Source: Pogonophryne albipinna
Lineage: Eukaryota; Chordata; Actinopteri; Perciformes; Artedidraconidae
Assembly: GCA_028583405.1 (NCBI GenBank)
Contig: CM053260.1
Span: forward strand, 17,623,401-17,687,400
Direction: 5' to 3'
Length of the DNA: 64,000 bases
Numbering within the stretch: the first letter of the stretch is position 1; every line of letters begins with the position of its first letter. Below, one piece after another: positions 36,601 to 64,000 of this stretch. A model generated the notes under the pieces. That model did no database searches. It worked only from the letters and a program-made list of their open reading frames with translations, and was not told where the DNA came from. The translations under genes were made by a program, and so were the position numbers.

Positions 36601-37132
36601 CGTCAAGCTGGCCCTGGACATCGAAATCGCCACCTACAGGAAACTGCTTGAAGGAGAGGAGGACAGGTGCGATAAACTTTAATAAATGCTTTTATGCTTC
36701 ACCATTAGCTTTAACTTTGAATTAAGGACTAACTCTGCATTATTCCAACATTAGAATTACCAGCGGAGGCTCAACTGCAACCATCCATGTGCAGCAGTCC
36801 TCTGGTGGTGGTAAGTTCAATACTTTATACATCATGATCATAAGGGCTATTTAAACCAACAGACCACAGTGCTATATTGATTAAAAAACTATAACACATA
36901 CATCTTTTTTTTCATCTGCTCCACAGTGTCCAGTGCCAACTCAGGTTATGGAGCCGGCTACGGAAGCAGCTCAGGTGGCGGCTACGTAAGCAGCTCAGGT
37001 GGCGGCTACGGAAGCAGCTCAGGTGGCGGCTACGGAAGCAGCTCAGGTGGCGGCTACGGAAGCAGCTACGGTGGCGGCAGTACCAAAACTATCACAAAGT
37101 CCAGTACATCCAGTACCAGAAGAGCATATTAA
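33645..37132 (+). CDS. type II keratin gene 2, Gly/Tyr/Ser-rich head and tail
   Basis: Nine coding exons: 33645-34061, 35270-35478, 35561-35621, 35723-35818, 35937-36101, 36206-36331, 36446-36666, 36755-36810 and 36927-37132, giving 518 aa. The head (about residues 1-121) is Gly/Ser-rich with [10 protein letters not shown] repeats. The rod starts with [20 protein letters not shown] and ends at [10 protein letters not shown] near residue 430. The 86-aa tail is a run of GGGYGSSS repeats ending in STRRAY, the glycine-loop style of epidermal keratins. Rod exon sizes (209, 61, 96, 165, 126 and 221 nt) equal those of gene 1. The exon 3 donor is GTGCAT, an unusual but shared feature of genes 2 and 3. 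The product should pair with type I keratins in surface epithelia. The ATG is the first one downstream of the TATA box. Confidence 0.94.
33768..33890 (+). repeat. coding tandem repeat in the head of keratin gene 2
   Basis: A 30-bp unit encoding about [10 protein letters not shown] occurs roughly three times in frame. It makes the glycine-loop part of the head and is likely length-variable between alleles. Confidence 0.75.
36950..37078 (+). repeat. coding 24-bp minisatellite in the tail of keratin gene 2
   Basis: Four to five in-frame copies of a 24-bp unit encode GGGYGSSS, with nearly identical codons in each copy. This points to recent unit turnover by slippage or unequal exchange. Confidence 0.85.
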
Positions 37133-38472: not shown

Positions 38473-40296
38473 TGCTACACACTAAGACAACACAAACACT
38501 AGCAAAATAACCAAAAAAGTCACATTTAACAAATTCACAGCTTTTGCAGTTCAAAATTTAGCTGCCATGTTCTATTTTATAGTGGTTGTAGTATGACAGG
38601 CAGATGCTCAGTAACTGGAAGATTATATTACAAACTAAACAGATATACTGTTGTAACACTCTATTATATGTGTCTTTCGGGTAAAACATATAATTTAGAT
38701 CAGCATCAACACAATGATTAATGATGGATATCGACTCCCTGAGTTAGCAAATTACTCTTTCTGATGTTATAAATGCAGCATTAATACTTTCTGACAAACC
38801 ATCAGTTTAAATCTCCATCCTAGTATCGCTTTTTCAAGGCATGTGGACCTGTTGTTCTCCTCTGTGCAACAGTTATACTATCAATACCTGTTGAGACTTT
38901 CATCATCTTGACAATTAAGACACCGTTGAGGCAATACATTATATGGAACTGAGCACAAATATATCTGCAACACTGTGCTTGACAAAGGGAGGAGCTAAAG
39001 ATTAAAAAGCACTAGCCACATACTAATGGGAAGCTAAAAGTATGCTTTACCTTTTTTTATGAAAAGAAGGATGACACCTGTGGCAGCGGGGTGTGGTTGG
39101 AGCGCCGGCTGCTGGAGTGATGGGAGTGACTCGGGAGGCAAGACAGCTGATCAGAATCAGGTAATTAGGCTCTCAGTAAAAAGCATGCTGGGAACCTTGT
39201 TCTGGTCTCTCATGCAGTAGGCTGGGTCCATCAACCTCCCAGCCACCTCAGCAAATAGAGGAGCTGATTGGTGCCTACGTTTATGTTAACCCCTTTTGTG
39301 TTAACCTCTCTTAACAATCGGGCTTAACAATATTCACGAAACTGGGTCTCAGGGCTTCTTAACATTTATCAACCTATTAATGTGTCATACCCACTTAACG
39401 GGAAGAAACTCAGCTAACTGACGACATGAACAATTTGTACCTAAACGAAACACAAGTCTAGCACCAAGCGTCTGAATCAGCACTAAGCGAAAGAATGCTA
39501 ACGCACTTAGCACATAACTCACGGTAGCGATATTTTATACTTCATGAAAGGGCGAAGGGGAAAGCTGAGATTCCACAGATTCCAATGGTATAAGTATCAC
39601 CACTCTGCGACCAAAACTCACGGCAACGAAAGCCAGGAAAGACAACACACAACTTCACTTTACGGGGTCAAAACGTCAAATACGTCTTACCTTTGCTGTT
39701 TTATGATCAAAAGTTGTGTTCAATGGAATTACAACGCATATAAACGCTGCTGAAGGTTAATCCAATGTCTCTGTGTCACTTTGAAATGATTACTGATAAT
39801 CCATCATCATATTTATGGCAATAAACGTATTTTTCATATAGAGTGTAACGGAGCTTCCGGTTTTGGGCATGCTGGCTGTGCATCACTCTCATTCACCAAT
39901 GGTAATGTTTAGATGGATTTAAGAACCTCCCCTCGATTATATTGGCTCTAACGGTTCAAAAGGTGAGGTGAGTTTTTTTTTCTAAACCTCTTTAAAAATG
40001 TCAAATTTCACTTGTTTTGTCAATCTTGATACAGGGTACTTATTATATGTTATAGTTTGGATTCCTAAAGCTTTTAGTCTACTATCCCATCATTCAAGGG
40101 TGGTTTTCACTATAAGTAATGTTTGTTTTTTTTAGACGGAAACTATGATTTAATTTGTTTTACTATGTTCAATCAGAATTTACTTTAAAATAAAAACATC
40201 TATATTGATTATCACACTTCTACAGCCAACTCACAGGTGTATCATTGCTTTTAGAAAAAAGATTATTCATTTACCCCTTTTAGAAGTGAAGATATA

Positions 40297-47205: not shown

Positions 47206-47640
47206 ACGGCAGAGCTCACAGTCAGACACTCAGAAGGACTTGGCTGTCCCTTTGAAGACTGCTCATCATCTGTTCTCCTCTTGTCAGAGTTACCAACCTC
47301 CACCACGGCAAACATGATGTCCAGGAAATCATACTCAGTCTCTGGCTCTTCTAAAGGTAGCTTGAAAAGTTCCTCCAGCTACTCTGCACAAAGAACAAGT
47401 TATGCGGTTGGTTCTGTTGTTGGATCTGGTTTTAGTTCAGGTTTTGGTTCAGGTGCAGGTTTTGGTTTAGGTAGCTCTGGCAGTTATGGCATTAGCTCCA
47501 GCCAAGCAGGAGGCAACTGCATGGCTCCATTGATCACTGCTGTCCAGTTTAACCAGAGCCTGCTGGCCCCTCTGAACCTTGCAATTGACCCCACCATCCA
47601 AGCTGTCCGCACCCACGAGAAGGAGCAGATCAAGACCCTC

Positions 47641-48475
47641 AGTAGTATTATTCATCCCGCTTCCGTCACATTAGTATGCATAAAAAGACAGGTGGACACG
47701 CCCCCAATTATGCAAATGAGCTAAGTCCCGCCTCCCATTGTTCGAGATCCTTTGATGTGAGTGGGTACAATTATGCAAATGAGCTAAGTCCCGCCTCCCT
47801 TTGTTCGAGATCCTTTGATGTGAGGGGTGTGGTGTTATAACAGGTAGGTGTGAAAAGCCCCCCTGTGTAGTGCCTTTGTTGTCTAATTCTTTGATGTGTT
47901 GATTAAGGCAGTCTCTTTGAAGTTATGCATGAGACTGTCTGGCCCCTGTCCCCTCAGAGTTGTATAGTCTAATTAGCCTTTGATGTTTTGCCCTTTGATG
48001 TGAGGTGTTATAACATACCGGTGTGTTATAAGCCTTTGATGTTAATCTTGGTGTCTCTTTGAAGTTATGCGGGAGACTGTCTAGCCCCCGCCCCCTCCCA
48101 GCCCAGGCCTCTCCCCCTTTCTCCACCCCTTCCTTTTGGCTATGAGGCCGGCAGATAGAGGGGGGGAGGGGGGGGTGGAATTAGGTGAAAATATGCTCAA
48201 ACTAATTAAAAGACAGTAATTTCCACTTACCAAGTCACCTTGCAAAAAAGAAAAATGGCCAAGAGACGCCTGTGACAACTTACCGCCATCCGTTCGGAGC
48301 GCCAGTCAAGAAACGAATGCCGCAGCTGTGCGGGGGTCAGACGCCTACAGCCAGAGATCTGTGCACAAACTTATCTCGTGCCCTCTTTTGGTCATGTGAG
48401 CGCGTTCATGTGTGCTGGAGGAGGGGCTCTGTGAGGAAGTGGCAGATTTTCCCCCCGGTTGTGTACTTTTCTAAT
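47641..48475 (+). repeat. left terminal inverted repeat with POU octamers
   Basis: The tip is AGTAGTATTATTC, containing a doubled AGT and a doubled ATT. Two canonical octamers ATGCAAAT lie at 47710-47717 and 47773-47780, in a 63-bp direct repeat with the phrase GAGCTAAGTCCCGCCTCCC. Many CTTTGATGTGAGG and CTCTTTGAAGTTATGC units follow. The inner 230 bp (from about 48240) copy the start of the ORF at 48816, including ATGGCCAAGAGACGCC, with a deletion between two GAGACGCCT repeats. Confidence 0.85.
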
Positions 48476-48654
48476 ACGTAAAGAGGGAAATAATAAAACA
48501 ATTTAAAAAAACATGATCTTTGTCTTTTTTATAATTACTTTACACAACTATAAGGAAACCCCCTACGAAGTTATATGAGGTTGTATGGGTGTAATATTAG
48601 ATTTTGCTGTATGCAACAAAAAAGGTTTGACTGGTGAAAAAGACTCTCACTTTT

Positions 48655-48735
48655 ACAGAGGGCTCCGTCTCCCAATCAACATAACAAGTCCCGCCCTCCT
48701 CACCAGATCATTTAAAAGTAAGGGGGTGGAAATAG
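48655..48735 (+). promoter_or_regulatory. element promoter module 1
   Basis: The phrase CTCCCAATCAACATAACAAG is followed by TCCCGCCCTCC and a TATA-like ATCATTTAAAAG. It lies about 90-150 bp before the ATG at 48816. Related modules occur at 51437, 52258 and 54176. Upstream of it, ACTGGTGAAAAAGACTCTCA also recurs before module 2. Confidence 0.6.
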
Positions 48736-48815
48736 ATGAAAAAAAGAAATACGCTCAAACTAAATAACAAGACAGTCATTTCCACTCACCAAGTCACCTT
48801 TCAAAAAAAAGAAAA

Positions 48816-49525
48816 ATGGCCAAGAGACGCCTTGATAAGGGTTTAATCAGCGAGACGCCTGTGACAACTTACAGCCATCCGACCGGAGCGCCAGTCAAGA
48901 AACGAATGCAGCATCTGTGCCGGGTTCAGACACCTCCAGCCGAAGAACTTCATGAAGAATGGACTCTGAAAAATGGCGATGTTTGGGGTTATGTATTCAA
49001 CTATATGGCGAATGAACTGCATTTCTACAATCTGAAGAATGGAGAAACGTATGGACCCCGTAGTGTTAAAGCGACACTGACCTCAACAGATTGGGCTGTG
49101 TTAACTCTGGTGTCTTCCAGAGATCTCCACGCAACCACTGTATCGGAAGAAGTAGTGCATCAAGAAACCATAGTGGAACCAGCGGTGTACAAGATATTTG
49201 CAAAGAAAAGCAAAGAAACGCAGACAGCATGCGAGATCAAAGAAGAGTTTTCACCACTGCCCCTCAATGTGGAGGGAGAAGAAGGAGATATTTCCCCGCC
49301 GCCAGAAGTGAGAAGAGTCCTGACAAGCACCGTCTGGGAAACTAAAAGCGGACCATCGGGGCGATGGTATTACCGCGCAAGCCGTTTGGTGACGCTGGGG
49401 AAGGACCCCTCTGATGATTTTGTTTTGGAGTATTTCAACTCTACATGCGGGGTTTTTCAGACATCCTTGCGGGTGCCTCTGACTGCTTGGCTGAAAATGA
49501 TTGATGGAAAAGCTACAAAGCTTAA
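48816..49525 (+). pseudogene. element ORF A, unknown, with two similar domains; broken by a TTAA element
   Basis: The frame starts ATGGCCAAGAGACGCC and runs open for 237 codons up to a TTAA target. There a 1.84-kb element (49526-51363) interrupts it, so the frame's last residues up to 49634 come from the insert. Past the insert the same frame stays open to a stop at 51459-51461. Two segments look alike. Residues about 48-97 have W.LKNG...Y...LHFYNLKNGE...WAVL. Residues about 175-230 have WETKSG...YY...VPLTAWLKMI. The pattern of a strand-rich half followed by a short helix with a conserved Trp weakly resembles PC4/p15 single-strand-DNA-binding coactivators. That comparison is from memory and unproven. 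The middle is acidic (EEGDISPPPE). A decayed copy of its 3' end lies at 52185-52240, and its 5' end is copied in both terminal repeats. Confidence 0.5.
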
Positions 49526-51363
49526 CCTCTTAAGCCCACCGTTTTTTTATGAGACTATGTCTCAGGGCTTCTTAACATTTATGAAACTATTAATGTTCCA
49601 TACCCTTTTAACGCTAAGAAACTCAGCTAACTGACAATGTGAACCATTTTTAGCTAAAAGAAACACAAGAGTAATACCAAGCCTTTGAATTAGCATGGAG
49701 CGAAAAAATGCTAAGTAATGCTAACGGAATTTGCACAGCACTCACGGTAGAAATGCCCTTATTACTTATCGTAACTGCACAAACAAGATATACGATTTAT
49801 AGCTGAGACTCCACAGATTCCACACATTTAATATCATCACTGTAGGACCCCGAATTGCGGAGCTATCAGCCAGAAAAGAGAAAGTAAACAACATCCGGTT
49901 TCAAAAATATTACAATAATTTCGTCTTACCTTTTTTGATTTGTGATCAAAAGTTGTGTTCACCGGAATAAAAACGCCGCTCAAGGTTAATCCAATGTCTT
50001 TGTGTCACGTAGAAATTTTGACTGATAATCCTTCATCATATTTATGGCAATATACTGGGTATAAAGTTTCGCCGTCCAGGCGTGCACTTTTAGATATGCT
50101 TTGTCCGTTTCTCTATTACGTGGTAATGTTTACGTTGATTTGGGAACTGCCCATCGATTCTATTGGTTCTGATGGTTAAGAAAAAGGTGTAAATCACACG
50201 AATCGACCAATGGGTTCCAGAGATATGGTCCTGCGTAAAGTATAAAGAATGCCAGCCAGTTTACGTACATTACGCAGCTGACTTCATTTATTGTTTACTA
50301 CCTAACAACAGGCATTACAACAGGACACAGAGCGCACGGAGGACAGAGCGGGCAGCAGATAACGGAATTGCAGTTTTATTGCTTATAGATTATCAGAACA
50401 TTTCAAAGGGGACACAGCCACATTGGATATTAACCTATGGATTAACTACATCATCGTTTTTATCGTTTTAATGCCATTGAAGACCAGTTTAGACCAGGCA
50501 AAGAGGAAGGTAAGCCATTAGCCTAGCGCATGCTAGTACCTAGCGCCACTTGTTTTGATGTACGTTTTTGTTGATAACGTCGCAAGTTTGTATCTTTCAG
50601 TGTTGAGGTGGGCACCGTTAGATTCTGTGTCTTTACGATCAAAAACGATGTGTTGGATGTGCAGCTAGGATAAGTAATAAGGGAGCTAGGATAAGTAATA
50701 AGGGAGCTAGGAGTGATTTTCGGTGCAGTAATAGGTTAGCATTTTTCGCTCGGGGCTAATTCAGATGCTCACTGTTAGCATTGTGTTTTTCCTAAGAGGA
50801 TAACAGAGTATGTTCTTATATTTTATTTATATTTTTATTTTTTTTCACAACAGTTGTATTTGGATGGAATGAATACCTATAGTGAAAATTCAAAGTAATA
50901 AAATGATTTTTACAGTGAAAAAGTTCAAATGGAACCGATGGTTCCCAAATTACCCAGAGGTGAGTCCGCCTGGACTTTATTTTTCTAAACCTCTCTAAAA
51001 AGGTCAAATTTCACTTGTTTTGCATCAATCTTGATACAGGGTACTTATTATATGTTATAGTTTGGATTCCTAAAGCTTTTAGTCTACTAACCCATCATTC
51101 AAGGGTGGTTTTTACTATAAGTAATGGGTTTTTTTAGGCGGACATTAGAATTTACATGTTTTTACTATGTTCCATCTGAATTTACTTTAAAATAAAAACA
51201 TCTATATTGATTCTGACACTTCTACATCCAACTCACAGATGTAACCTTGCTTTGAGAGAAAAGATTATTAATTTACCCCTTTTAGAAGTGAAGATATAGT
51301 CTTTGTTGTGTTAGTGACATTTTCGAGCCTGAAACCTGAAAAACAGGCTCAGGGCTTAAGAGG
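49526..51363 (+). mobile_element. TTAA-target element, copy 2 (piggyBac-like)
   Basis: Flanked by TTAA at 49522-49525 and 51364-51367, with ends CCTCTTAAGCCC...GGGCTTAAGAGG. The uninterrupted relative at 52223 reads straight through CTTAAAGAAC and shows the empty site. Compared with copy 1 it retains about 780 extra bases (roughly 50185-50960), including a GC-richer stretch with a possible first-exon donor (GAGGAAGGTAAGCC near 50510). It is therefore closer to a full-length element. No transposase seen. Confidence 0.8.
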
Positions 51364-51436
51364 TTAAAGAACTTTTTAAACAGAGTCAGACATCGATGGA
51401 CATTATACTGGTGAAAAAGACTCTCACTTTTGCAGA

Positions 51437-51507
51437 GGACTCCGCCTCCCACTCAACATAACAAGTCACACCCTCCTCACCAGATCATTTAAAACTAAGG
51501 ACCCCTC
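51437..51507 (+). promoter_or_regulatory. element promoter module 2
   Basis: It contains CTCCGCCTCCCACTCAACAT, then CACACCCTCCTCACCAG and a TATA-like ATCATTTAAAAC followed by TAAGGACCCC. It matches modules 1, 3 and 4. The ORF A frame ends inside it. Confidence 0.6.
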
Positions 51508-51566
51508 AAAGAAAAGCTTTGTGTTTTTCTACCTATGTAAAAGAGCGTCGGGGTTGTCTTACGAAA

Positions 51567-51737
51567 ATGTGTTATCTCTGTATGTGTTTAAAAATGAATT
51601 TTGTGAAAAATACCAACGGTGTGAGAGACGTCATAAAGACACTCATTTTAACCACAGTGTTTGTTCTCTACAAATGTTTAAAGATTGTTACAAAATGTAA
51701 AAAAAATAAAAATAAAAAGGTATGGAGACAAAATTAA
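51567..51737 (+). CDS. small element ORF with one hydrophobic segment
   Basis: A 56-codon frame beginning MCYLCMCLKM lies just downstream of promoter module 2. It has one hydrophobic stretch (TLILTTVFVLYKCLKIV) followed by a Lys/Asn-rich end. AATAAA signals overlap its end near 51707. It may be a small membrane protein. I do not recognise it, and its reality rests mainly on its position behind the module. Confidence 0.3.
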   Translation: MCYLCMCLKMNFVKNTNGVRDVIKTLILTTVFVLYKCLKIVTKCKKNKNKKVWRQN

Positions 51738-52184
51738 TTCAGGTGACTCTGTCTTTACTAGGAAAACACAAATATAATACAAATGGTTTAGGGGGTAAAA
51801 TTCGTTTTCTTTTTAATGTTTTTTTTTTTTTTTTTAAAACACTTGTTCAGTTAAACAAGGTTTTTTCTTTTCTGATAACCTTACATATTTTTAGTTATTT
51901 TCTGCTACCAAGATACGTTAAGATACACCTTGATGTACGCAACACTCAACAAAGGGTATAATGTGAAGTACTTGGTAAGGAATGGGGTTTTCTTTAAGGG
52001 GTGCAAAACTTTAGAACTGGGTAAAATATTCATTAATTTGTAATGAATAGAGTTTCTTTCTTTTGATTTTCAACATACTATTTTGTACACAATGATTTTT
52101 CCATTTTTCTGACAATCTATACTTTTGACTTTTTCCGCAAAATCTAGACAAACTATTACTTATTCTTAAATTTGACCTATTGCT

Positions 52185-52240
52185 GCTTGGTTGGAAATGA
52201 TAGATGAAAAAGCTACAACGCTTAAAGAACTTTTTTTTTT
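52185..52240 (+). pseudogene. decayed duplicate of the ORF A 3' end
   Basis: CTGCTTGGTTGGAAATGATA and the following AAGCTACAACGCTTAAAGAAC closely match 49482-49525 plus 51368 onward. It lies directly before promoter module 3, as the ORF A end lies before module 2. The element has therefore grown by duplicating gene-end plus promoter units. Confidence 0.7.
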
Positions 52241-52257
52241 TAAACTTTCAATTCTCC

Positions 52258-52355
52258 AGATGACTCCTCCCCATTCAACGCAATAAGTCCCACCCTACAC
52301 TCAGCAAATCATCTAAAACGAAGGACCCCACTAAGACGACCGTTGTAAACTAGCC
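52258..52355 (+). promoter_or_regulatory. element promoter module 3 with shared leader
   Basis: It contains ACTCCTCCCCATTCAACGCA, then ATCATCTAAAACGAAGGACC and a leader CTAAGACGACCGTTG ending at the ATG. It is almost identical to module 4, and the identity continues through the first seven codons of the ORFs. Confidence 0.65.
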
Positions 52356-52859
52356 ATGGATCTGAGAAAAACCAAGACTCCCCCCGCGAGTTGCAGCCAG
52401 GAACAGACTCCTGGACTACCATCATCACCACCATTTTGGACACCCGAATCCTGCAATACTACTGCTGCTGATTTTGCTCCTTGGGGCAAGACGTCTCTGT
52501 TTATCGACACAGTGAAATCGGTGTTGGTTGATATTGTGGAGAGGGTGATACATCGGTACAGAGAAGAAATCTGCAACGGGTGCCGAGTCAGTCACCCCGG
52601 CCAGAGGCAACACGATTTTCTGAATGACATGTCCGATTTTTACTTCAGAAACAATTACAACGCGTTAATGAAAAGACCCTGGCTCACCAACTTCATTACT
52701 GAGATCGACCAGACTCTTATTGATAAAGACATTTTCACGGATGATTGGAGGATCCAAGGCGCTTCGGAGGCTTTTCTTCACAATCTCAAAAATTGCAGAC
52801 GCCTCAAGGAGAGACTTGAAAAGATCCATGCCGAGTTGGATGGAGAAGAAGAAGACTAA
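52356..52859 (+). CDS. element ORF B, 167 aa, C-x2-C...H motif
   Basis: It starts MDLRKTK, the same seven residues as ORF C. A Pro/Ser-rich segment follows, then a helical part. Residues 64-90 contain RVIHRYREEICNGC and HPGQRQH, giving C73, C76, H80 and H86 in a spacing that could bind zinc. I recall similar YRxxICxGCxxxHPxQxxH phrases in unannotated ORFs linked to animal mobile DNA elements and small DNA viruses, but cannot verify this. The end is charged and helical (RRLKERLEKI) and finishes in an acidic EEED. The last 28 bases overlap ORF D in another frame. Function unknown. Confidence 0.55.
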   Translation: MDLRKTKTPPASCSQEQTPGLPSSPPFWTPESCNTTAADFAPWGKTSLFIDTVKSVLVDIVERVIHRYREEICNGCRVSHPGQRQHDFLNDMSDFYFRNNYNALMKRPWLTNFITEIDQTLIDKDIFTDDWRIQGASEAFLHNLKNCRRLKERLEKIHAELDGEEED

Positions 52860-53394
52860 TAACCAGCAGTTGACTGAAGCCAGGGATTTTGTTCGACACA
52901 TTGACTTTTTTCTTCAAAGTAAAATAAAAATGGGAAACTACTTTGCAAAACGCTCTGTATATAGTGATCATAATGTAGTCAATACCCTTTTAATAAGTGT
53001 GGTGATGAGGATGATTGAAAACAGAATGAGTAGTGACCCCTGTGTAAAAAGAATGGCTGAAGTTTGTAAACTGGAAGACATTTTGGATATCGTTCGTTCT
53101 GACAGTACTATTCCGGGTCATTGGGAAACGATTGTAAACGAAACATTTAAAGTGGTCCTGGAATCTTCATTTTCCGAAACATTCTGTAACATTACTGCAG
53201 AAATGAAACAAACATCAAAAGTGTATCATGTGCTCTCATTGTATGCTCTGTTTGTAGATGTAATTCATCTTTGTGTCGAAAACAGCATACACATGAATAT
53301 TTTGACTGAAGTGAAAAAACTCCACCATGATATTTCCAGTAATATGGGGAATTCTAAGCTGGAGACGGTCCTGAGGATGTTACAATCAGTATAA
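52832..53394 (+). CDS. element ORF D, 187 aa, all-helical, unknown
   Basis: I chose the ATG at 52832, which overlaps the end of ORF B in the +1 frame. The frame is also open upstream to 52720, so frameshifting from ORF B is possible. The product is predicted mostly helical and rich in hydrophobic heptads. Its C-terminal half has HWETIVNETFKVVL and VLSLYALFVDVIHLCVE. A Bcl-2-like fold is a thought, because adintovirus relatives are known to carry such genes, but no BH motif is convincing. No promoter module lies directly before it, so it probably shares the ORF B transcript. An AATAAA follows at about 53418. Confidence 0.5.
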
Positions 53395-53763
53395 CTATTG
53401 ATTTTTGTGTGTGAAAAAATAAAAATGTAAATAGGACATTTAAAAAAAATAAAAAAAGTGTTTTTTTTACATTTAAAAACTGTTGTCTTCATTATAGCAA
53501 GGGGAGTGTGTCTGATACATGTGTATTACAGTCCTTCACATGCACTGTTGTCTTCATTATAACAAGGGGAGGATAACAGGGAAGATGTAGGATAAATGTG
53601 TATTGAAACGTGCGTATTATACACCCACAGAAACACAGAAATGCAGAAACACAGACACACAGAAAACACTAGTATGGTTTTTGTGTTTTCAGTGTTTTTT
53701 GTGTGTCTGTACACACAAAGCACAAATCATTTAAAATAAACCCTGAATAAAATCTAGAGAGGA

Positions 53764-54170
53764 CCATTAAGAGTCAGATGCTTGACGAAATCTACTAAAA
53801 CAAAGTACTTCATTATCTACTTTTCAGTTTTTTATACACAAAAGTGTATCTTTCAGTAACTTTTCTCAGAGAATTTAAGCATAAATCTGTCAAATGTTCA
53901 AAACAGCCTTGTTTCACTGAAATAGCCTCAAAATCACAAACTGCCATTAAGAGTCAGATTCTTAATGAAATCTACTGACACAAAGTACTTCATTATCTAC
54001 TTTTCAGCTTTTAAATACAAAAGTGTATCTTTCAGTAACTTTTTTGAGAGAATTAAGCATAAATCTGTCAAATTTTCAAAACATCCTTGTTTCACTGAAA
54101 TAGCCTCAAAATCACAAACTGCCATTAAGAGTCAGATGCTTTACGAAATCTAATAAAACAGAGTACTTTC
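53764..54170 (+). repeat. 180-bp tandem repeat, about 2.2 copies
   Basis: Units start at 53764, 53944 and 54122 with CCATTAAGAGTCAGAT and contain CAAAGTACTTCATTATCTAC. The copies differ by a few bases. The array lies between ORF D and promoter module 4 and has no coding content. Confidence 0.85.
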
Positions 54171-54173
54171 TAC

Positions 54174-54268
54174 AGATGACTCCTCCCACTCAACGCAATA
54201 AGTCCCACCCCACTCAGCAAATCATATAAAACTAAGGACCCCACTAAGACGACCGTTGAAAACTAGCC
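54174..54268 (+). promoter_or_regulatory. element promoter module 4 with shared leader
   Basis: It contains ACTCCTCCCACTCAACGCAA and AAATCATATAAAACTAAGG, the best TATA-like form among the modules, then the same leader as module 3 up to the ATG at 54269. Confidence 0.65.
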
Positions 54269-55369
54269 ATGGATCTGAGAAAAACCAAGTCTGGTGTAGC
54301 CTCCCCTTATTATCACCAGGATAACGGATATGGGCTTAATGACTGGATGTTACAAAGTAGGGGAGAGGATGTTCCCGAAGAAGAGCTCTCCTCTATATCA
54401 TATCCATGTAAGGTCTTTAGGACAAAAGAGGACCATGATAACATGACATATGAAGAATATCTTTCTTTAAAAGATGGTATTATAGATAACCTTTGTAGAA
54501 ACAGTATATCTCATACCACTCGCCAAGATCGCAAACGACAATTAGCAGAAAAGAAAAGAAAAAGTAAAGAAAAACGAAGAAAAAGAAAAAGCAAAATGAA
54601 AAGGAGAAGAAAAATGAAAAGCAAACGCAGAAAGCGAATGAAAAGAAAAGGGGCAAAAGGACGGAAAACGAAAAAGACAAAAAGAAGGAAGGTGAAAAGA
54701 AAAAGGAACAAAGTGAAGAAATTTAAACTAGAGGATGCTGATGGTGTTGTAGAGCCATTACCGGATCATAATAATCTTATAGATCATCTACCGCTAACCG
54801 ACTGCTGCGAATGTGTTGAGCAAATACCAAAAGCAATGGCAGAGCTTTGCTTCAATATAATGAGAGAAAATGCGCGAAACTGTGGAATTGCTCAAATTGG
54901 CGACAGTGCCAGAACATGTATTAAAAGACTGATGGAGGATCTCTATTCTAGTATCGGTTGTCATTACATCGAAGGATACGCCAAAACGTGTGACAACATA
55001 GACAAAGCTTTTGAAGACAATTATATGGTACCTGTCCCTACAGCTAAACAAATCCTACGCCAGGTATTCAACAGACCACAAGAAGCACAAGAAGCCCCAG
55101 AAAGGATTACATTCAGAGCTAATAATGGTGAAACCGAAGAAGAAGCAAAGCAGATTATAATCGTTGTGGGTGAAAGGATAGAGAATTTGTATGTGATGTT
55201 AATGCATTTATCTGATATAAAAAATGCATTCGTATACTTCCAAGAGACTCCTAAACATCTACTTGGGCAATGTGAATTGAACGATAAACCGATCACTGTA
55301 AATGAAACGCGGAGAGAAGCAGCAGTGCAAATCGTTAAGTCTATTACCTTGTATGCACTACGACATTAG
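54269..55369 (+). CDS. element ORF C, 366 aa, very basic middle region
   Basis: It starts MDLRKTK like ORF B and then diverges. Residues about 87-153 are almost only Lys and Arg with a few Ser, Met and Gly (for example KRKSKEKRRKRKSKMKRRRK). Such a stretch would bind nucleic acid or target the nucleolus. The C-terminal 200 residues are helical with several Cys (DCCECVEQ; CGIAQIGDSARTCIKRL). A basic core-like protein that condenses DNA is one possibility. I do not recognise the family. The frame is intact, starts just after promoter module 4 and is followed by ATTAAA-like signals near 55420. Confidence 0.6.
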   Translation: MDLRKTKSGVASPYYHQDNGYGLNDWMLQSRGEDVPEEELSSISYPCKVFRTKEDHDNMTYEEYLSLKDGIIDNLCRNSISHTTRQDRKRQLAEKKRKSKEKRRKRKSKMKRRRKMKSKRRKRMKRKGAKGRKTKKTKRRKVKRKRNKVKKFKLEDADGVVEPLPDHNNLIDHLPLTDCCECVEQIPKAMAELCFNIMRENARNCGIAQIGDSARTCIKRLMEDLYSSIGCHYIEGYAKTCDNIDKAFEDNYMVPVPTAKQILRQVFNRPQEAQEAPERITFRANNGETEEEAKQIIIVVGERIENLYVMLMHLSDIKNAFVYFQETPKHLLGQCELNDKPITVNETRREAAVQIVKSITLYALRH

Positions 55370-55495
55370 CTTGGTAAAATGTAATGTGTTTTTATGAAAA
55401 TGTGTTGAATGTTGCGTTTTCAATTAAACAACCATTACAAAATGAAAATGTGTTTTTATTTTTTGCTTTCATATATAGTAATAGTATTGTAAACG

Positions 55496-55589
55496 AAACA
55501 TTTAAAGTGTATCATGTGCTCTCATTGTATGCTCTGTTTTTAGATGTACAGAGCATACAATGAGAGCACATGATACACTTTAAATGTTT
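55496..55589. repeat. perfect 42-bp-arm palindrome copied from ORF D
   Basis: Arms 55496-55537 and 55548-55589 are exact reverse complements around a 10-nt spacer. The left arm joins two pieces of ORF D, AAACATTTAAAG (53148 region) and GTGTATCATGTGCTCTC (53220 region), with the bases between them removed. It is not part of a reading frame. Confidence 0.9.
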
Positions 55590-56329
55590 AAAAGTACTCT
55601 GTTTGAGTAGATTTCAGCACACAGGGTCTCTACTGTAAACAGAAAAAACATAACATTTTTAAGTATATAATAATATACTATCCATATAATATACTAGTTT
55701 AACCCCTAGCAAAAAAAAAACAACATTTAATAATTACATGATATTATAAAATAAAATAAAAAGTACTTACCAGAGTTTTTCAAGATCAGATACAGGTCAA
55801 GAAAATGCATAGAGGAGGTATGGTGCTGGCTCATTAGCCCTCTCACTCTTCTTAGAATGATCCTGTGCAATTTTTAAAAGTTGAACTCCTATCCCCTTAT
55901 AAACCAAAATAACAATAGCCCTTAAAGAGCCTGTGACACGAGTTTCCCCCATCATCCAAACCCATCAATTTGAGTAAATATTGTCCCCTTGAAAACCGTT
56001 ACTGAACTGATTTTGGATATTTGTACTTTGATAACCATTAATCTGCCCTTCAATGTTGACCATTTTCTGGATCTTCTCGGGGATTCTTCAAGTCCCGCCA
56101 AATTATGGGTGACGTCATTGCGGGCACAGCGCTCCAGCTGCACCGTTCAGGATCCCAGCATCTGCATGTAAACGCACGATGGCGCACAGAGCAGCAAGCT
56201 CAGACAGCGATGACAGTTTAATTTTGAACGTGTCTGAGAGCTCATATGAGGCTGAAGGATCGGTTTATGTTGTATCTGTTAGAAGTTTAGGAATTAGGTC
56301 AATATGGGCGATCATACGGTCATGTAACC

Positions 56330-57190
56330 AGTGGTGGACTGGGACTTAAAATCATCCCGGGACTCTCGACCGGCCCACTTCGGTACCGCTAGTAAATTGT
56401 CAACGGGGGGAGTGGGGGATGTCGGGGGCGGCGGGTGCTGTAGGCTGGGGAAGGCTAAGCCTTCCCAAATATTTGTGTCACTGCATCCTGGTAAAATACA
56501 AATATAATGTATAATGTCTGTGTCTTTGACATTAGCGCTGCTAGCCACCTGTGCCCTGTACTACGAAGCCAGTTCAACATACCCTGGATATGTTTGAGTA
56601 ACAAACAAACTAACAACAACAAACTAACAAACGAGATCTCGCTAAGCGGTCCTACGACGCTGGTTATTAACTCGGTAAATCAAGCCAGGGTTTCTCTCAC
56701 CAGCTGAGAGCGCGTTCACGTCTAAGACACGAGTGGATCTGACTTTAATTACATTTGACTTGAGTGTTTCGTCAACATAATGTGTGGCTTAAAATAATAC
56801 TTCTGCATACAGTATGTGACACTGTAAGTGTTGCACAGCCAGATACGGCTGGAGAAGCTGACTCGGATAAGGAAATATATGATATATTATGATATTATAT
56901 GATCGATGATCTGATTGATGATGTAATATGAATGATAAGTGCGACACGTCGGCGTCTTCTCTGCATACGGCAGTTTAAACTGTATTTCCTTTATCCTGTA
57001 ATATAACTTGAGAGATTTAAACTCCGCACACTGAGTTGATCTCTTTTCTATAGACGCCGGAGGCGGGCAGCGTCAGGTAAAAGAAGTTATTTAGCCTTCC
57101 CAAAACTGAGCCTCACGCGCCGCCTATGGGGATGTACTAGTGACTTATCCGACCGGCCCACTTCGGTCCCGGCTCATCGGGATTCGTCCC
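56330..57190. mobile_element. nested hAT-like element remnant
   Basis: The left end CAGTGGTGGACTGGGAC and right end GATGGCCAGTCCGCCACTG belong to the same family as 60687-61984. I found no matching 8-bp duplication, so the copy is probably rearranged. A further inner repeat begins near 56435 (GAAGGCTAAGCCTTCCC) and ends near 57105, with related inverted sequence. Confidence 0.5.
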
Positions 57191-57349
57191 GATGGCCAGT
57201 CCGCCACTGCACCCAGCCCACGTAAACTGTCAACGGGGGGAGCCTCGCTGCGGGGAAACGGTGGACCTAGTGTCCCGATCGGAGTGGGAATAATAATAAT
57301 AATAATAATCCGTGCATTTTATCCATTAATTTCCCAACATTGTGGTAAA

Positions 57350-57695
57350 AAAAACACACGTTTAATCCATGTTGGTGTACTACAACTACAAAAAGCATCG
57401 GTTTGTTTTCTCATCAGGAAATGCAGACCGGCTCAAACAAACGATTTGTAATCATCATTCTCACGATCATTTAATGTATCATATGTTCGCCGAATTGACA
57501 TGAAAGCACTAATAAATGTTGTTTAATCCACTTGAGTTTACAACTACAAAAATAATCGATTTGTTTTTATATCACATCCTACGGGAGGAAATTCAGCAGC
57601 TCTCAATACCGATTTGTAATCCTAATTTAATCATCATCTTCACCACGATCATTTATGTTTATGTTCGCCGAATTGACATGAAAGCACTGACAAAT
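57350..57695. repeat. diverged tandem duplication, about 165-bp unit
   Basis: Two units each run from TTTAATCCA through ACAACTACAAAAA and GATTTGTAATC to GTTCGCCGAATTGACATGAA. The units have diverged. A short (AAT)n lies just before, at about 57290. Confidence 0.7.
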
Positions 57696-58243
57696 ATGAA
57701 TATACTGTAGTCAACTTCATTAAAACGTTATTAACGTGCCTAAACTCAGTAATTCACAATTTCTACGCATGACAACACACTTTGTCCGTGTTTCGCTCTC
57801 TCACCGCACAGTGAAGCGTTCCCGCATTGACGTCACTTCCGGCTTCCCCCAAAATTTCAAAATGACTCGAAGGAATTTCCCCGCGATGTTCGAAATTATT
57901 GATATTTATCGGAACGGTATCGCATCTTCTTTTTTAAACTGACGGTTCGAGATGACTAGTAGCCCAATATTTCATTGCACAACAGTTGTTGGGATGCTGT
58001 CACAGGCTCTTTAATTAACACTAATCATTTAAAAAAAAACTTACATCTAATTTAGAGAGGACAATAACGTTTTTACGTGTCTTAGTGAGTGAAAATTAAT
58101 GGCTGTTTTATTTAGTTAGAGCGTATTTCTTTTTTAAAAACTAACTCCATCCCCTCGCTTCTCACCTCACAGAGAGTGTCTTAATCAACATATAGATTAA
58201 CATCCCAGGCTTATCACAAACCCTCACATCAAAGGCCAACTCC

Positions 58244-58246
<3 letters not shown>

Positions 58247-58333
<87 letters not shown>
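58247..58333. repeat. (GT)n microsatellite
   Basis: About 43 GT units just inside the right terminal repeat. Confidence 0.97.
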
Positions 58334-58336
<3 letters not shown>

Positions 58337-58391
58337 TGTTCTTAAAGGTAGGGGTAGGTCATTTTGGAGAAACCAGCTCGAGTGAGCTAGA

Positions 58392-59369
58392 ATTAGAAAA
58401 TACACAACCGGGAAAAATCTGCCACTTCCTTACAGAGCCCCTCCTCCAGCACACATGAACGCGCTCACATGACCAAAAGAGGGCACGAGATAAGTTTGTG
58501 CACAGATCTTCGGCTGTAGGCGTCTGACCCCCGCACAGATGCTGCATTCGTTTCTTGACTGGTGCTCCGGACGGATGGCGGTCAGTTGTCACAGGCATCT
58601 CTTGGCCATTTTTCTTTTTTGAAAGGTGACTTGGTAAGTGGAAATTACTGTCTTTTATTTAGTTTGAGCATATTTCTATTTTCACCTAATTCCACCCCCC
58701 ACTATCTGCTAGCCTCATAGCCAAAGGAAGGGGTGGAGAAAGGGGGGAGAGGCCTGGGCTGGGAGGGGGCGGGGGCTAGACAGTCTCACGCATAACTTCA
58801 AAGAGACACCTAGATTAACATCAAAGGCTTATAACACACCAGTGTGAAATCACACCTGCCTGTTATAACACCTCACATCAAAGGGCAAAACATCAAAGGC
58901 TAATTAGATTAGTCAACTCTGAGGGGACTGGGGCCAGACAGTCTCATGCATAACTTCAAAGAGACTGCCTTAATCAACACCTAGATTAACATCAGAGGCT
59001 TTTTTCACACCTACCTGTTATAACAACTCACATCAAAGGATTAGACTACAAAGGGGTGTGATGGGACAGGGGCCAGACAACATAACTTCAAAGAGACTGC
59101 CTTACTCAACACATCAAATAATTAGACAACAAAGGCACTACACAGGGGGGCTTTTCACACCTACCTGTTATAACACCTCACCCCTCACATCAAAGGATCT
59201 CGAACAAAGGGAGGCGGGACTTAGCTCATTAACATAAGTGTACCCACTCACATCAAAGGATCTCGAACAATGGGAGGCGGGACTTAGCTCATTTGCATAA
59301 TTGAGGGCGTGTCCACCTGTCACTTTTTATGCATACTAATGTGAAGAAAGCGGGATGAATAATACTACT
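58392..59369 (-). repeat. right terminal inverted repeat
   Basis: Reverse complement of the left repeat, about 140 bp longer because it has an extra block of the CTTTGATGTGAG/CTTTGAAGTTATG units. One octamer (ATTTGCAT at 59291-59298) is kept. The second octamer position reads CATTAACATAAG and is lost. The inner end again copies the ORF A start; the short minus-strand frame there (58359-58598) is a truncated duplicate, not a gene. Confidence 0.85.
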
Positions 59370-59482
59370 ACCCTCAACAACCGCTTTGCTTCCTTCATCG
59401 ACAAGGTTGGTTCCTGTGCTCTCTGCTTGTGACTGTGTTATGTGAAATGTACTGTAGGCCTGAGTATCTTACTGCCAATTGC

Positions 59483-60658
59483 CTGTAATGCACTACAGGG
59501 GTCCCTCAGGGCTATGTTCTTGGTCCCCTCCTCTTCTCCTTGTACACAAACTCGCTCGGATCTGTCATTAGCCCGCATGGTTTTTCATACCACTGCTACG
59601 CTGACGACACCCAATTAATTCTGTCCTTTCCCCGCTCAGAGACCCAGGTCGTCGCACGCATCTCTGCTTGTCTAGCTGACATCTCTCAGTGGATGTCTGC
59701 TCATCACCTCAAGCTCAACCTTGACAAGACTGAACTGCTTTTCCTTCCGGAAAAAGATTGTCCCACTCTTGACCTAACAATCAAGATCGGCACCTCTGTT
59801 GTTTCCCCGACTCAGACTGCAAGGAATCTGGGTGTGATCCTAGATAACAAACTGTCCTTCACTGCAAACATCGCTGCTACAACCCGCTGCTGCAGATACA
59901 CGCTTTACAACATCAGGAGGATACGTCCCCAGCTGACCCAGAAAGGCACGCAGGTTCTGGTCCAGGCTCTCGTCATCTCACGCCTAGACTACTGCAACTC
60001 CCTCCTGGCTGGTCTACCTGCATGTGCCATCCGACCTCTGCAGCTCATCCAGAATGCAGCGGCTCGTCTGGTCTTCAACCTTCCTAAATTCTCCCACACC
60101 ACGCCGCTCCTCCGCTCCCTCCACTGGCTTCCGTTAACTGCTAGAATCCACTTCAAGACAATGGTACTTGCGTACCATGCTGCGAATGGATCTGGCCCTT
60201 CCTACATCCAGGACATGGTTAAACCGTACACCCCAGCACGTGCACTCCGCTCTGCATCAACCAAACAGCTCGCTGCACCCTCGCTGCGAAGGGGACCCAA
60301 GTTCCCATCAGCAAAAACACGTGGGTTTGCTATCCTGGCTCCAAAATGGTGGAATGACCTCCCCATTGACATCAGGACAGCAGATAGCTTACACACCTTC
60401 CGGCGCAGACTGAAAACTCATCTCTTTCGACTCCACTTCGAGCAATAGAACTATTAACAAAGCACTTATATACTAATAAAGGACTGGCTTACCTAAAGCC
60501 AGTTGAGTAGCACTTGAAATGTTTGGCTCTATGAAACCTGATGTACTTATATGATTCTGTTTTCTTCAAGTTTGTATTTTGTTGGTCGAACGCACTTATT
60601 GTAAGTCGCTTTGGATAAAAACGTCAGCTAAATGCAATGTAATGTAATGTAATGTAAT
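59483..60658 (+). mobile_element. 5'-truncated L2-like LINE in keratin gene 3 intron 1
   Basis: From about 59498 the frame is open for 316 codons to a stop at 60448. It begins inside the reverse transcriptase at GVPQG, followed by the YADD box (59597) and the conserved L2 C-terminal region ([25 protein letters not shown]). The 3' end is GTAAGTCGCTTTGGATAAAA and a (TGTAA)n tail, typical of fish L2. The endonuclease and most of the reverse transcriptase are missing, so it is dead on arrival. In GVPQGS the Ser is Tyr. Confidence 0.85.
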
Positions 60659-60741
60659 GCTCTCATGGGGCTAAATTACTTGCAGCCAGGGGCGGACTGG
60701 GACTGACAATCAGCCCGGGACTCTCGGCCGGCCCACTTCGG

Positions 60742-61826
<1,085 letters not shown>

Positions 61827-62788
61827 CACTTCGGTACCGCAAGTAAATACCGCTAGTAAATTGTCGACGGGAGGGGGGCGGTGCTAGTGACTTTTCCGAA
61901 CCGGCCCACATCGTCTGAACGGCCCACTTCAGTACCGGCCCATCGGGATTAGTCCGGAACGTCCCGATGGCCAGTCCGCCTCTGCTTGCAGCTGCTGTCA
62001 AAAGCTAAATGTGAAGTGAATTGTAGCATAAAAGAGTCAATTAAATCAACAGTCTAACCACATTTACAACATCTGACAATCTTACCTTTTTTTTTGTCTC
62101 CACAGGTCAGGTTCCTGGAGCAGCAGAACCAAATGCTGGAGACCAAATGGAGCCTCCTGCAGGACCAGACCACATCCCGCTCCAACATCGATAGCATGTT
62201 CGAGGCTTACATTTCCAACCTGCGCAGACACCTCGACGGAATGGGCAATGAGAAGGTCAAGCTGGAGGGAGAGCTGAGGATCATGCAGGGTCACGTTGAG
62301 GACTTCAAGAATAAGTGAGTGCTTATATGACATGGTCACTAACTTTTACAGACATTTGATGAAGTCAACAGATGTTTTAAAATCGAGCAGATGTACTCAA
62401 ATCCCGCCATGTATGAAGATGAAATCAACAAACGTGCAACTGCAGAGAACGAATTTGTGCTCTTGAAGAAGGTGCATATACATCAAATATGCATTCATTC
62501 ATTGGAAATCCTGGTGTTAACAACAAAGTAGCAAATTCTAACACTTTCGGTTTCTACATTATTTTCTTTTTAGGATGTTGATGCTGCTTACATGAACAAG
62601 GTGGAGCTGGATGCCAAGGCTGATGCTCTTCAGGATGAGATCAACTTCCTCAGTGCCGTCTATGAGACTGTATGTATTTATAATATCATATTCTTTATAA
62701 TACTATAATCTTTTCTGAGTTAAATCTGATGAAAATCTGCTACATTTTCCATAAAAAAAGGACAAAGAGTTCATTACTGTGCAACAAC

Positions 62789-63857
62789 CAGTGGCGACTG
62801 GTCATTAGGGGCAGGTGGGGCACAGCCGAAAGTATTAAAAATAATGATTACAACAAAATGCAAAAAATAAATAAAAAAATATATAAAATATATTTTAAGA
62901 TCATGTTTAATCATCTGATTCGTCTGTAAATTGCTGTTTTAGTCTGTGTTCTTCTAATTAGTGTCTACAGTGTGTGCCTATTGAGCTGTTTAGAGCCATG
63001 TGGGACAAAACCCGATCCTGCCCCTCCCTCTCTCTGTCTAAGTGAACGGTGACTGTAAAAACTACACTGCGCATGCTCAGAATATTTTCCTATTTAATGT
63101 GTATGACAAAAAATAATGACCATAGGGGCATAGTGCTGCCATCCCCACCATACGTCATCTCACATCATTCATAGCTGATTGGCTGTAAGTACGTGTGCCG
63201 CGAAAAGTGTGGTGTGTGAAGAGGAGACGAGAGAGCTGCAGTGAGGCGTCCTAAAACCCGGACGTAAGCTGCGCATGGCTTCCCTCGACAAAAAAGCAAT
63301 GACATTTCTCCATAGGATTTTAGAAAATAGCTCCAAATAAGGTCTGTGGGAAACGTACCTGTTAGATAAATGCACGTTTTGTTCAGCCGGATAATATCCA
63401 CATGTCTACCCTACTTTTATAATTTTCGAATCATAAATCTATTGATTAGATTAGATTTATGATAGACTTTTGAAACTACAAGAACATAAGGAGGACTTTT
63501 ACAAAAAAGTAATAGAGATTTTTGTCCAGAAGGATAGGACTTAATCTTCAAGTCAAGGTAAGACTGCAATTTTATTGAAAATGGGATCTTACTAAGAGAG
63601 AACAATTCAATATTTAAATGATAAAATTACATTTTTTGGGTATCCTTTTGTTGAACTGTCTGTTTAAAATTAATTGAAGCATCAGACAAAAAAAGCTTTT
63701 GAAAATAATACTATATTTTGATTTAGGTCAAAATATAATATTTGTAAACCTGAAGAGTCAGTGCCAGTGCCTCACCAACCATGAACCTCACTGCAGAAGC
63801 TATAGACATCTAAGTTTGTTGTGCCCCACCACTTTTGTACATATAAAAACGCCACTG
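62789..63857. mobile_element. hAT element in keratin gene 3 intron 4
   Basis: Ends CAGTGGCGACTGG...CGCCACTG are flanked by the 8-bp duplication GCAACAAC (62781-62788 and 63858-63865). Gene 2 keeps the empty site GTGCAACAACCATTG at the same place in its intron, which confirms the insertion. No transposase seen. Confidence 0.88.
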
Positions 63858-64000
63858 GCAACAACCATTGGTTCTGTAGGAGCTTCGTGAGCTGCAGAGC
63901 CAGATCAAGGACACCTCCGTTATCGTGGAGATGGACAACAGCCGTAACCTGGACATGGACTCTATTGTGGCTGAAGTGCGTGCTCAATATGAGGACATTG

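What the first reader, a model, noticed from the sequence alone, without database searches (positions are those of the whole stretch)
47641..59369. Polinton-class element that lacks every hallmark Polinton gene and carries its own gene set
Seen: 6-bp duplication ACCCTC, inverted repeats of 0.84/0.98 kb beginning with AG, and a gene-bearing interior. Known: long inverted repeats with a 6-bp duplication are diagnostic of Mavericks/Polintons (adintovirus relatives). Inferred: a non-autonomous lineage that keeps only the ends and a set of unfamiliar genes (ORFs A, B, C, D). Non-autonomous Polintons are usually simple deletion products. One with at least three promoter-equipped ORFs behind repeated modules would be a distinct kind of parasite or satellite of a larger virus-like element.
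Basis: partly seen in the sequence, partly recalled or inferred. Interest (0 to 1): 0.88.

Follow-up and report, generated by a model that had tools for sequence, protein, structure and literature searches.

The report
Palindromic Mavericks without core genes
A virus-like element with the exact ends of vertebrate Mavericks but no detectable copying or shell genes sits in a keratin gene; its many relatives in the same genome are giant mirror-image copies of one end of larger Mavericks, which looks like a family of satellites that live off them.

Summary
The element (47641-59369) has intact 6-bp duplications and ends AGTAGT...ACTACT, the published motif of vertebrate Mavericks. It splits a keratin exon. 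Two TTAA-flanked inserts lie inside; one breaks ORF A. The genome holds at least 141 matches to protein A and 115 to D. Ten related copies were fetched; the seven compared arm by arm are all giant palindromes (end-A-B-C-D | D-C-B-A-end, or reduced forms) of 11.1-13.9 kb. Seven of eight testable copies have exact 6-bp duplications, all different. The window copy keeps the palindrome's centre (55496-55589) but lost most of its right arm. Full Mavericks with PolB between related ends exist in the same genome. Best reading: core-less, snapback-type derivatives of one Maverick end, moved in trans by full Mavericks and propagating as palindromes with conserved genes (A: median dN/dS 0.40). Integrase in the long relatives and the functions of A-D were not tested.

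The parts
47635..47640 (.). left 6-bp target-site duplication ACCCTC, in keratin exon 1
47641..48475 (+). left terminal repeat (835 bp), begins AGTAGT; two 63-bp tandem units and, inward, a broken copy of the start of A
48630..48723 (+). module: copy of the 3' end of an A-like gene plus promoter-like ATCATTTAAAA (48707); 93% identical to 51407-51500
48816..49525 (+). ORF A, part before the insert
49526..51363 (.). 1,838-bp nested insert flanked by TTAA (piggyBac-type site, recalled) that breaks ORF A; pieces match 39338-40296
51364..51461 (+). remaining 3' end of ORF A, matching the C-termini of P0001 and P0002
51407..51500 (+). second copy of the A-tail/promoter module (ATCATTTAAAA at 51484)
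51567..51737 (+). small ORF E (56 aa), unproven
52176..52235 (+). relic of the 3' end of a further A-like gene
52298..52355 (+). promoter module of B (ATCATCTAAAA at 52308)
52356..52859 (+). ORF B (167 aa)
52930..53394 (+). ORF C (154 aa); relatives in the palindromic copies
53764..54168 (.). 178-bp tandem repeat, 2.3 copies here; greatly expanded in some relatives
54211..54268 (+). promoter module of D (ATCATATAAAA at 54221)
54269..55369 (+). ORF D (366 aa), a 70-aa stretch with 67% Lys+Arg
55496..55589 (.). centre of the palindrome: 42-bp inverted repeat, aligned base by base to the centre of the C2 palindrome, with a shorter loop
55926..58010 (.). 2,085-bp second nested insert flanked by TTAA
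58392..59369 (-). right terminal repeat (978 bp), ends ACTACT: with short fragments before it, all that is left of the right arm
59370..59375 (.). right 6-bp target-site duplication ACCCTC

Best explanation
The element is one damaged copy of a family of core-less, palindromic Mavericks. SHOWN: Maverick end motif and 6-bp duplications in this and other copies; copies that read end-A-B-C-D and then the same again in mirror image; one and the same palindrome centre in several copies at different target sites; no core family among the ORFs tested; longer elements with PolB between related ends, in which one end is followed by the A-side sequence and the other is not. INFERRED: during protein-primed copying of a full Maverick the growing strand switched template and folded back, giving a genome with the A-end at both termini and the PolB, integrase and capsid genes lost. 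Both ends still start replication, so the full Maverick's polymerase copies it and its integrase inserts it. Halving the unique sequence and doubling the A-D genes would favour it over its parent, as with snapback genomes of other DNA viruses. A may bind single-stranded DNA and the basic part of D may bind DNA. In the window copy the right arm was later lost and two transposons entered.
For: Ends, duplications, empty site. At least 141 matches to A (1,968 first-look candidates) and 115 to D (7,428). 32 converging pairs of A 3-25 kb apart (64 of 141) against 2 diverging and 2 same-strand pairs; 18 converging pairs of D under 4 kb apart against 2 diverging and 3 same-strand, the latter being split matches in one gene. 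Seven of seven copies compared are palindromic, e.g. C2:40463497-40477351, 13,855 bp, 6,855 bp at 99.9% identity. Exact, different duplications in 7 of 8. Same centre in C2, C9, C10, C15 and the window. Ends of the PolB-linked type: the 3 elements with unlike ends all hold PolB (C18:2974012-2993389, C14:21219884-21244114, C13:35198995-35212687), the 6 with the A side at both ends hold none. D: 0 of 115 matches within 30 kb of a PolB match. dN/dS medians A 0.40, B 0.59, C 0.73, D 0.52.
Against: Integrase and capsid genes of the long relatives were not looked for. Counts are of best-scored candidates only. C8:34334424-34345424 has ends and long mirrored repeats but no matching duplication and no ORF of 90 aa in the stretch fetched. 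C10 and C16 lack D (C10 also B and C). dN/dS used open copies only and includes two PolB-linked copies of A; for C 14 of 48 pairs reach 1 or more. The centre contains a small inverted repeat that could make independent fold-backs happen at the same place. Movement in trans was not observed.
Confidence: 0.8

Rival explanations
1. The palindromes are dead-end by-products: full Mavericks keep making them afresh, each inserts once, and none copies itself further. There is no satellite lineage.
For: A is nearly the same in PolB-linked and palindromic copies (94-98% at DNA level); a small inverted repeat at the centre could be a hot spot for fold-back; smaller elements with the A side at both ends exist (3.9-8.1 kb).
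Against: The same centre and loop at four other target sites plus the window; D absent within 30 kb of every PolB match (0 of 115); B of the PolB-linked C14 copy only 36% identical to the B shared by the palindromes, which are 82-96%; far more A matches (141) than PolB places (35).
Confidence: 0.14
2. One of A-D is an unknown recombinase or polymerase and the element moves by itself.
For: A is conserved (39-78% in the distant relatives) and matches no Pfam family at its cut-off.
Against: Largest ORF 366 aa; ends of the type used by PolB-bearing Mavericks; weak fold matches of A point to DNA-binding chains, though not.
Confidence: 0.04
3. The palindromes are assembly artefacts.
For: Long perfect palindromes can arise from fold-back reads (recalled).
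Against: Both sides have their own flanks with exact 6-bp duplications in 7 copies, and in most copies the arms differ by 1-6%.
Confidence: 0.02

Closest known systems
Intact vertebrate Mavericks/Polintons (PMC8097293; sections 7 and 16 read, passages elsewhere)
   Same: End motif (AGT)2//(ACT)2, 6-bp duplication, non-core ORFs next to the ends.
   Different: No PolB, integrase, ATPase, protease or capsid family found; inverted repeats of kilobases up to nearly the whole element, against 46-1,447 bp; 11.1-13.9 kb palindromes, against 12.7-24.6 kb.
Snapback defective-interfering genomes of adeno-associated virus (PMC8235507; abstract and passages)
   Same: Self-complementary genome made of one end and its neighbouring genes, needing replication proteins in trans; template switching proposed as origin.
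   Different: Other virus family with other priming; here integrated copies with duplications, many per genome.
Palindromic deletion forms of adenoviruses and of protein-primed linear plasmids (recalled, no call)
   Same: Duplicated end with terminal-protein origins at both termini.
   Different: Not known to me as inherited genomic families.
MITEs and other non-autonomous DNA transposons (passage of PMC3072357)
   Same: Depend on enzymes supplied in trans.
   Different: Carry conserved genes in two mirrored sets.
PUR-alpha / PC4 / Whirly single-stranded-DNA-binding fold (protein A)
   Same: Second half of A predicted as four strands and a helix in two models.

Membership tests
Vertebrate Maverick/Polinton | 6-bp target-site duplication | tested here: met
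   window 6 of 6 bases; 7 of 8 testable other copies
Vertebrate Maverick/Polinton | end motif (AGT)2//(ACT)2 or one of two other types | tested here: met
Vertebrate Maverick/Polinton | protein-primed PolB gene | tested here: not met
   window: no Pfam match in 34 ORFs, of which 16 lie in the element's own sequence and 18 in or across the nested inserts; other copies: 0 PolB matches inside 6 elements with the A side at both ends; 4 ORFs of copy C2 without Pfam match
Vertebrate Maverick/Polinton | integrase, packaging ATPase, protease, capsid proteins | tested here: not met
   same Pfam scans of the window copy and of C2; not searched genome-wide
Vertebrate Maverick/Polinton | PM, PZ and PW proteins | not testable with these tools
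   no reference sequences at hand
Non-autonomous Maverick moved in trans | several copies with the same genes at different target sites | tested here: met
Non-autonomous Maverick moved in trans | full Maverick with the same ends in the genome | tested here: met
   PolB between related ends in 3 elements; integrase not tested; end similarity high for the C8 palindrome, limited to short stretches for the window's own end type
Non-autonomous Maverick moved in trans | mobilisation by the helper's enzymes | not testable with these tools
   needs experiment
Snapback genome | one terminus and its neighbouring genes duplicated in mirror image | tested here: met
   7 of 7 copies compared; A side at both ends against one end in PolB elements; window copy only in part
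PUR/PC4/Whirly fold (protein A) | four-strand-plus-helix units matching solved members | tested here: inconclusive
   sequence test mostly negative
piggyBac-type transposons (nested inserts) | TTAA target duplication with short inverted ends | tested here: met
   no transposase sought

The most novel reading that the evidence does not exclude
Fish genomes hold a self-perpetuating satellite lineage of Mavericks: palindromic genomes made of one Maverick end in mirror image, copied from both ends and inserted by a helper Maverick, spread to a hundred or more gene copies, and kept by selection on their own genes (A, shared with the helper; B and D, so far seen only away from PolB). They may act on the helper as interfering genomes.
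Probability: 0.5. Interest if true: 0.87.

Novelty: new variant of a known kind. Interest (0 to 1): 0.8.

Why it matters
The large survey of vertebrate Mavericks required integrase and PolB hits on one contig, 4-40 kb apart (PMC8097293, section 16), so palindromic core-less elements were outside its reach although they outnumber PolB places here (141 matches to A against 35 PolB places). Mavericks have not been seen as particles (abstract). Inherited snapback genomes are the kind of trace that replication from protein-primed ends, with fold-back, should leave, so they make the replication mode of Mavericks testable from genomes alone, and they suggest that vertebrates carry virus-like agents with their own parasites. 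None of the ten literature searches listed a palindromic or core-less Maverick family; these lists were capped and mostly seen as titles and starts of abstracts, and subscription journals and Repbase were not searchable.

Tried and rejected
Decayed core genes in the window copy: none at Pfam level. Of 34 ORFs scanned (of 111 stop-to-stop ORFs of 45 aa or more overlapping the element), 18 turned out to lie in or across the nested inserts, so 16 test the element itself. The only element-side hit below E 0.01 was DUF3335 (E 0.00059, 19.8 bits, cut-off 25) in an ORF inside the first insert.

Relatives elsewhere: five protein scans of viral contigs (A twice, B, C, D) and three DNA patterns gave none; prokaryote genome contigs none; phage records none; Rfam none; PHROGs best E 0.12.

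Protein A by sequence: its halves reach their score in 125-167 of 500 shuffles; second halves against human PC4 263-369 of 500; first halves 29, 406 and 9 of 500. By fold: Whirly chains are 12 of the first 20 and 15 of the 50 rows shown (best E 0.25); PUR-alpha entries 6 of 50 rows, with no Whirly; PUR, PC4 homologues, SP_0782 or Whirly are 11 of the first 16 and 13 of 50 rows; one Pur-alpha (rank 36) among 50 rows of mixed folds. Weak and inconsistent, so only a lead. B, C and D are not related to each other by sequence beyond the first residues of B and D (the C comparison used a wrong frame and was redone).

Octamer ATGCAAAT as an origin sign: 5 found, 5.4 expected; dropped. Bacterial promoter scan: at chance.

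Copies not fitting: C8:34334424-34345424 (flanks AATGTG and ATTATT differ; arms full of the 178-bp repeat; no ORF of 90 aa in L058). C9 (left end not found) and C6 (right terminal bases not found) could not be tested for duplications. In C6 an ORF with endonuclease domains of a LINE type lies between the arms.
Full report
1. The insertion. The element runs from 47641 to 59369 (11,729 bp). ACCCTC stands on both sides; the ends are AGTAGT and ACTACT. The terminal repeats are 835 and 978 bp, 96.5% identical over 821 ungapped columns. It splits exon 1 of a type II keratin gene (Pfam Keratin_2_head, E 7.4e-17): EKEQIKTL|NNRFASFIDKV. Two further keratin genes of the window carry the undisturbed site, and later exons of the split gene are still recognisable, e.g. 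83 residues at 90% identity without a stop. The host is probably a teleost; that is inference.

2. The ends are those of vertebrate Mavericks. PMC8097293 (sections 7 and 16 read, passages elsewhere) gives for intact elements 6-bp duplications, the commonest end motif 5'-(AGT)2//(ACT)2-3', inverted repeats of 46-1,447 bp, sizes of 12,723-24,620 bp and, in most, two accessory regions. Its authors expect the doubled motif to serve the jumping-back step of protein-primed replication.

3. The window copy. ORF A (from 48816) is broken by a 1,838-bp TTAA-flanked insert; its 3' end lies beyond. A second TTAA-flanked insert covers 55926-58010. B, C and D follow on the same strand. Promoter-like modules with ATCATNTAAAA precede A, B and D by 109, 48 and 48 bp; the motif occurs 6 times in the element and once elsewhere in the window. 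No core family was found; of 34 ORFs scanned 16 belong to the element's own sequence. Relatives in the large protein set (E at most 0.01): A 5 of 785 candidates (78, 47, 39, 66 and 70% identity, the last two over 42 and 21% of A; the 39% one is ABVT39_005625 of Epinephelus coioides), D 1 of 2,184, B 3 of 13.

4. The host genome. The genome search failed in 11 tries and then answered: 1.073 Gb, the window at C19:17623401-17687400. The left terminal repeat has 112 matches; only 40 of 1,573 candidates were scored, so this is a lower bound. Protein A (P0001) has 141 matches, D 115. 64 of the 141 A matches form 32 converging pairs 3-25 kb apart; 2 pairs diverge and 2 are on one strand. D forms 18 converging pairs under 4 kb, 2 diverging and 3 same-strand pairs.

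5. The relatives are palindromes. Ten copies were fetched in adjacent pieces, one only in its left part. In nine of ten A lies in both arms, facing inward; B in both arms in eight; D, whole or in part, in both arms in five (C2, C9, C15, C13, C8); C16, C6 and C10 have no D or a fragment only. Seven were compared arm by arm: sizes 13,855, 11,727, 12,380, 12,076, 13,073, 11,057 and 12,834 bp, mirrored over 4.6-6.9 kb of the left piece, the main blocks at 93.7-99.9% identity; in C2 6,855 bp match at 99.9%. All seven have AGTAGT...ACTACT and exact duplications: CTCAAA, CTTGCA, CCCTGC, GATAGG, ATTGCT, GACACT, GACAAC. An eighth (C8:34334424-34345424) has the ends but unlike flanks; two were not testable. 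In copy C2 the ORFs of 100 aa or more in the fetched arm are A, a shortened B, C and D, plus one across the left end; A, C and D of C2, and B from its other arm, have no Pfam match.

6. The centre. In C2 the mirror point lies just after D. Its 40-bp hairpin with the same loop, in one or the other direction, is found in C2, C9, C10 and C15 (4 of 10). Window 55370-55589 aligns to the C2 centre, with most of the loop gone. So the window copy is such a palindrome that lost nearly all of its right arm after the centre; short mirrored fragments and the 978-bp end remain.

7. Helpers. PF03175 (DNA_pol_B_2) has 78 matches at 35 places in this genome and none in 14 control genomes. Two PolB places lie 12.6 and 13.2 kb from an A copy on the opposite strand (C14, C18), and those A copies are followed outward by a Maverick end (L032, L033). 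Searching with that end (423 bp, reaching to the start of A) gave 41 matches. Ten elements have both ends in the list: three with unlike ends (300 bp at one, 394-423 bp of the query at the other), of 13.7, 19.4 and 24.2 kb, all with PolB inside; six with the A side at both ends, of 3.9-22.9 kb, none with PolB; one with the short form at both ends, without PolB. One of the six is the C8 palindrome of point 5. So in the PolB elements one end is the A end, and in the palindromes that end is doubled.

8. A lineage of its own? For: the shared centre at different sites; D never within 30 kb of PolB (0 of 115); the B next to A in the PolB-linked C14 copy is only 36% identical to the window's B, while the palindromes' B are 82-96%; open copies show dN/dS medians of 0.40 for A (292 of 294 pairs below 1; 26 sequences, two of them PolB-linked and one copy entered twice), 0.59 for B (101 of 106), 0.73 for C (34 of 48) and 0.52 for D (4 of 5). 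Against: A itself is shared with PolB elements at 94-98% DNA identity, and in the A tree the PolB-linked copies fall inside a group with the C8 palindrome; a hairpin could be a hot spot for repeated fold-back.

9. Mechanism. Shown: ends, palindromes, duplications, PolB elements with related ends. Inferred: fold-back during strand-displacement copying gives a genome with the A end at both termini; the helper's PolB starts at both, the helper's integrase inserts it. Passages of PMC8235507 describe snapback genomes of adeno-associated virus, made of one moiety, replicating with helper proteins, inhibiting when in excess. Function of A: two poor models (pLDDT 37.5, 37.3) with weak, partly conflicting matches to PUR, PC4 and Whirly chains.

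10. Verdict. Confirmed and larger than reported: a palindromic, core-less Maverick family in one fish genome with probable helpers alongside. It is not filed as an autonomous Maverick. New variant of a known kind.

Noticed in passing
about 6800-10200, 33700-36700, 47313-64000: Cluster of three type II keratin genes; the third is split by this element and has reverse-transcriptase-like LINE sequence (ORF 59540-60448, recognised by eye) in its first intron.
   Followed up: partly
49526-51363 and 39338-40296: TTAA-flanked repeat with ends CCTCTTAAGCCC; a partial copy (70-90% identical in pieces) lies upstream in the window.
   Followed up: partly
53764-54168; L058, L002, L045, L046: The 178-bp repeat between C and D is expanded into long mirrored arrays in some copies (C8:34334424-34345424, C10) that have lost most or all genes.
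   Followed up: partly
C10:16969815-16975085; C204:120638-124561; C1:4689232-4695072; C468:1307491-1315623 of the host genome: Small elements of 3.9-8.1 kb with Maverick ends of the PolB-linked type, one of them with the short end form on both sides, as if the other Maverick end had been doubled.
   Followed up: no
P0004, P0006, P0009 (no locus): Relatives of A, D and B on other contigs are fused to one shared foreign sequence absent from this window: probably a repeat that entered several copies.
   Followed up: partly
47705-47828 and 59180-59300: 63-bp tandem units in both ends, with ATGCAAAT (or a variant) beside CCCGCCTCCC; the octamer count alone is at chance.
   Followed up: partly
whole element against window: CpG observed/expected is 0.56 in the element and 0.39 in the rest of the window, which fits a late arrival.
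   Followed up: no
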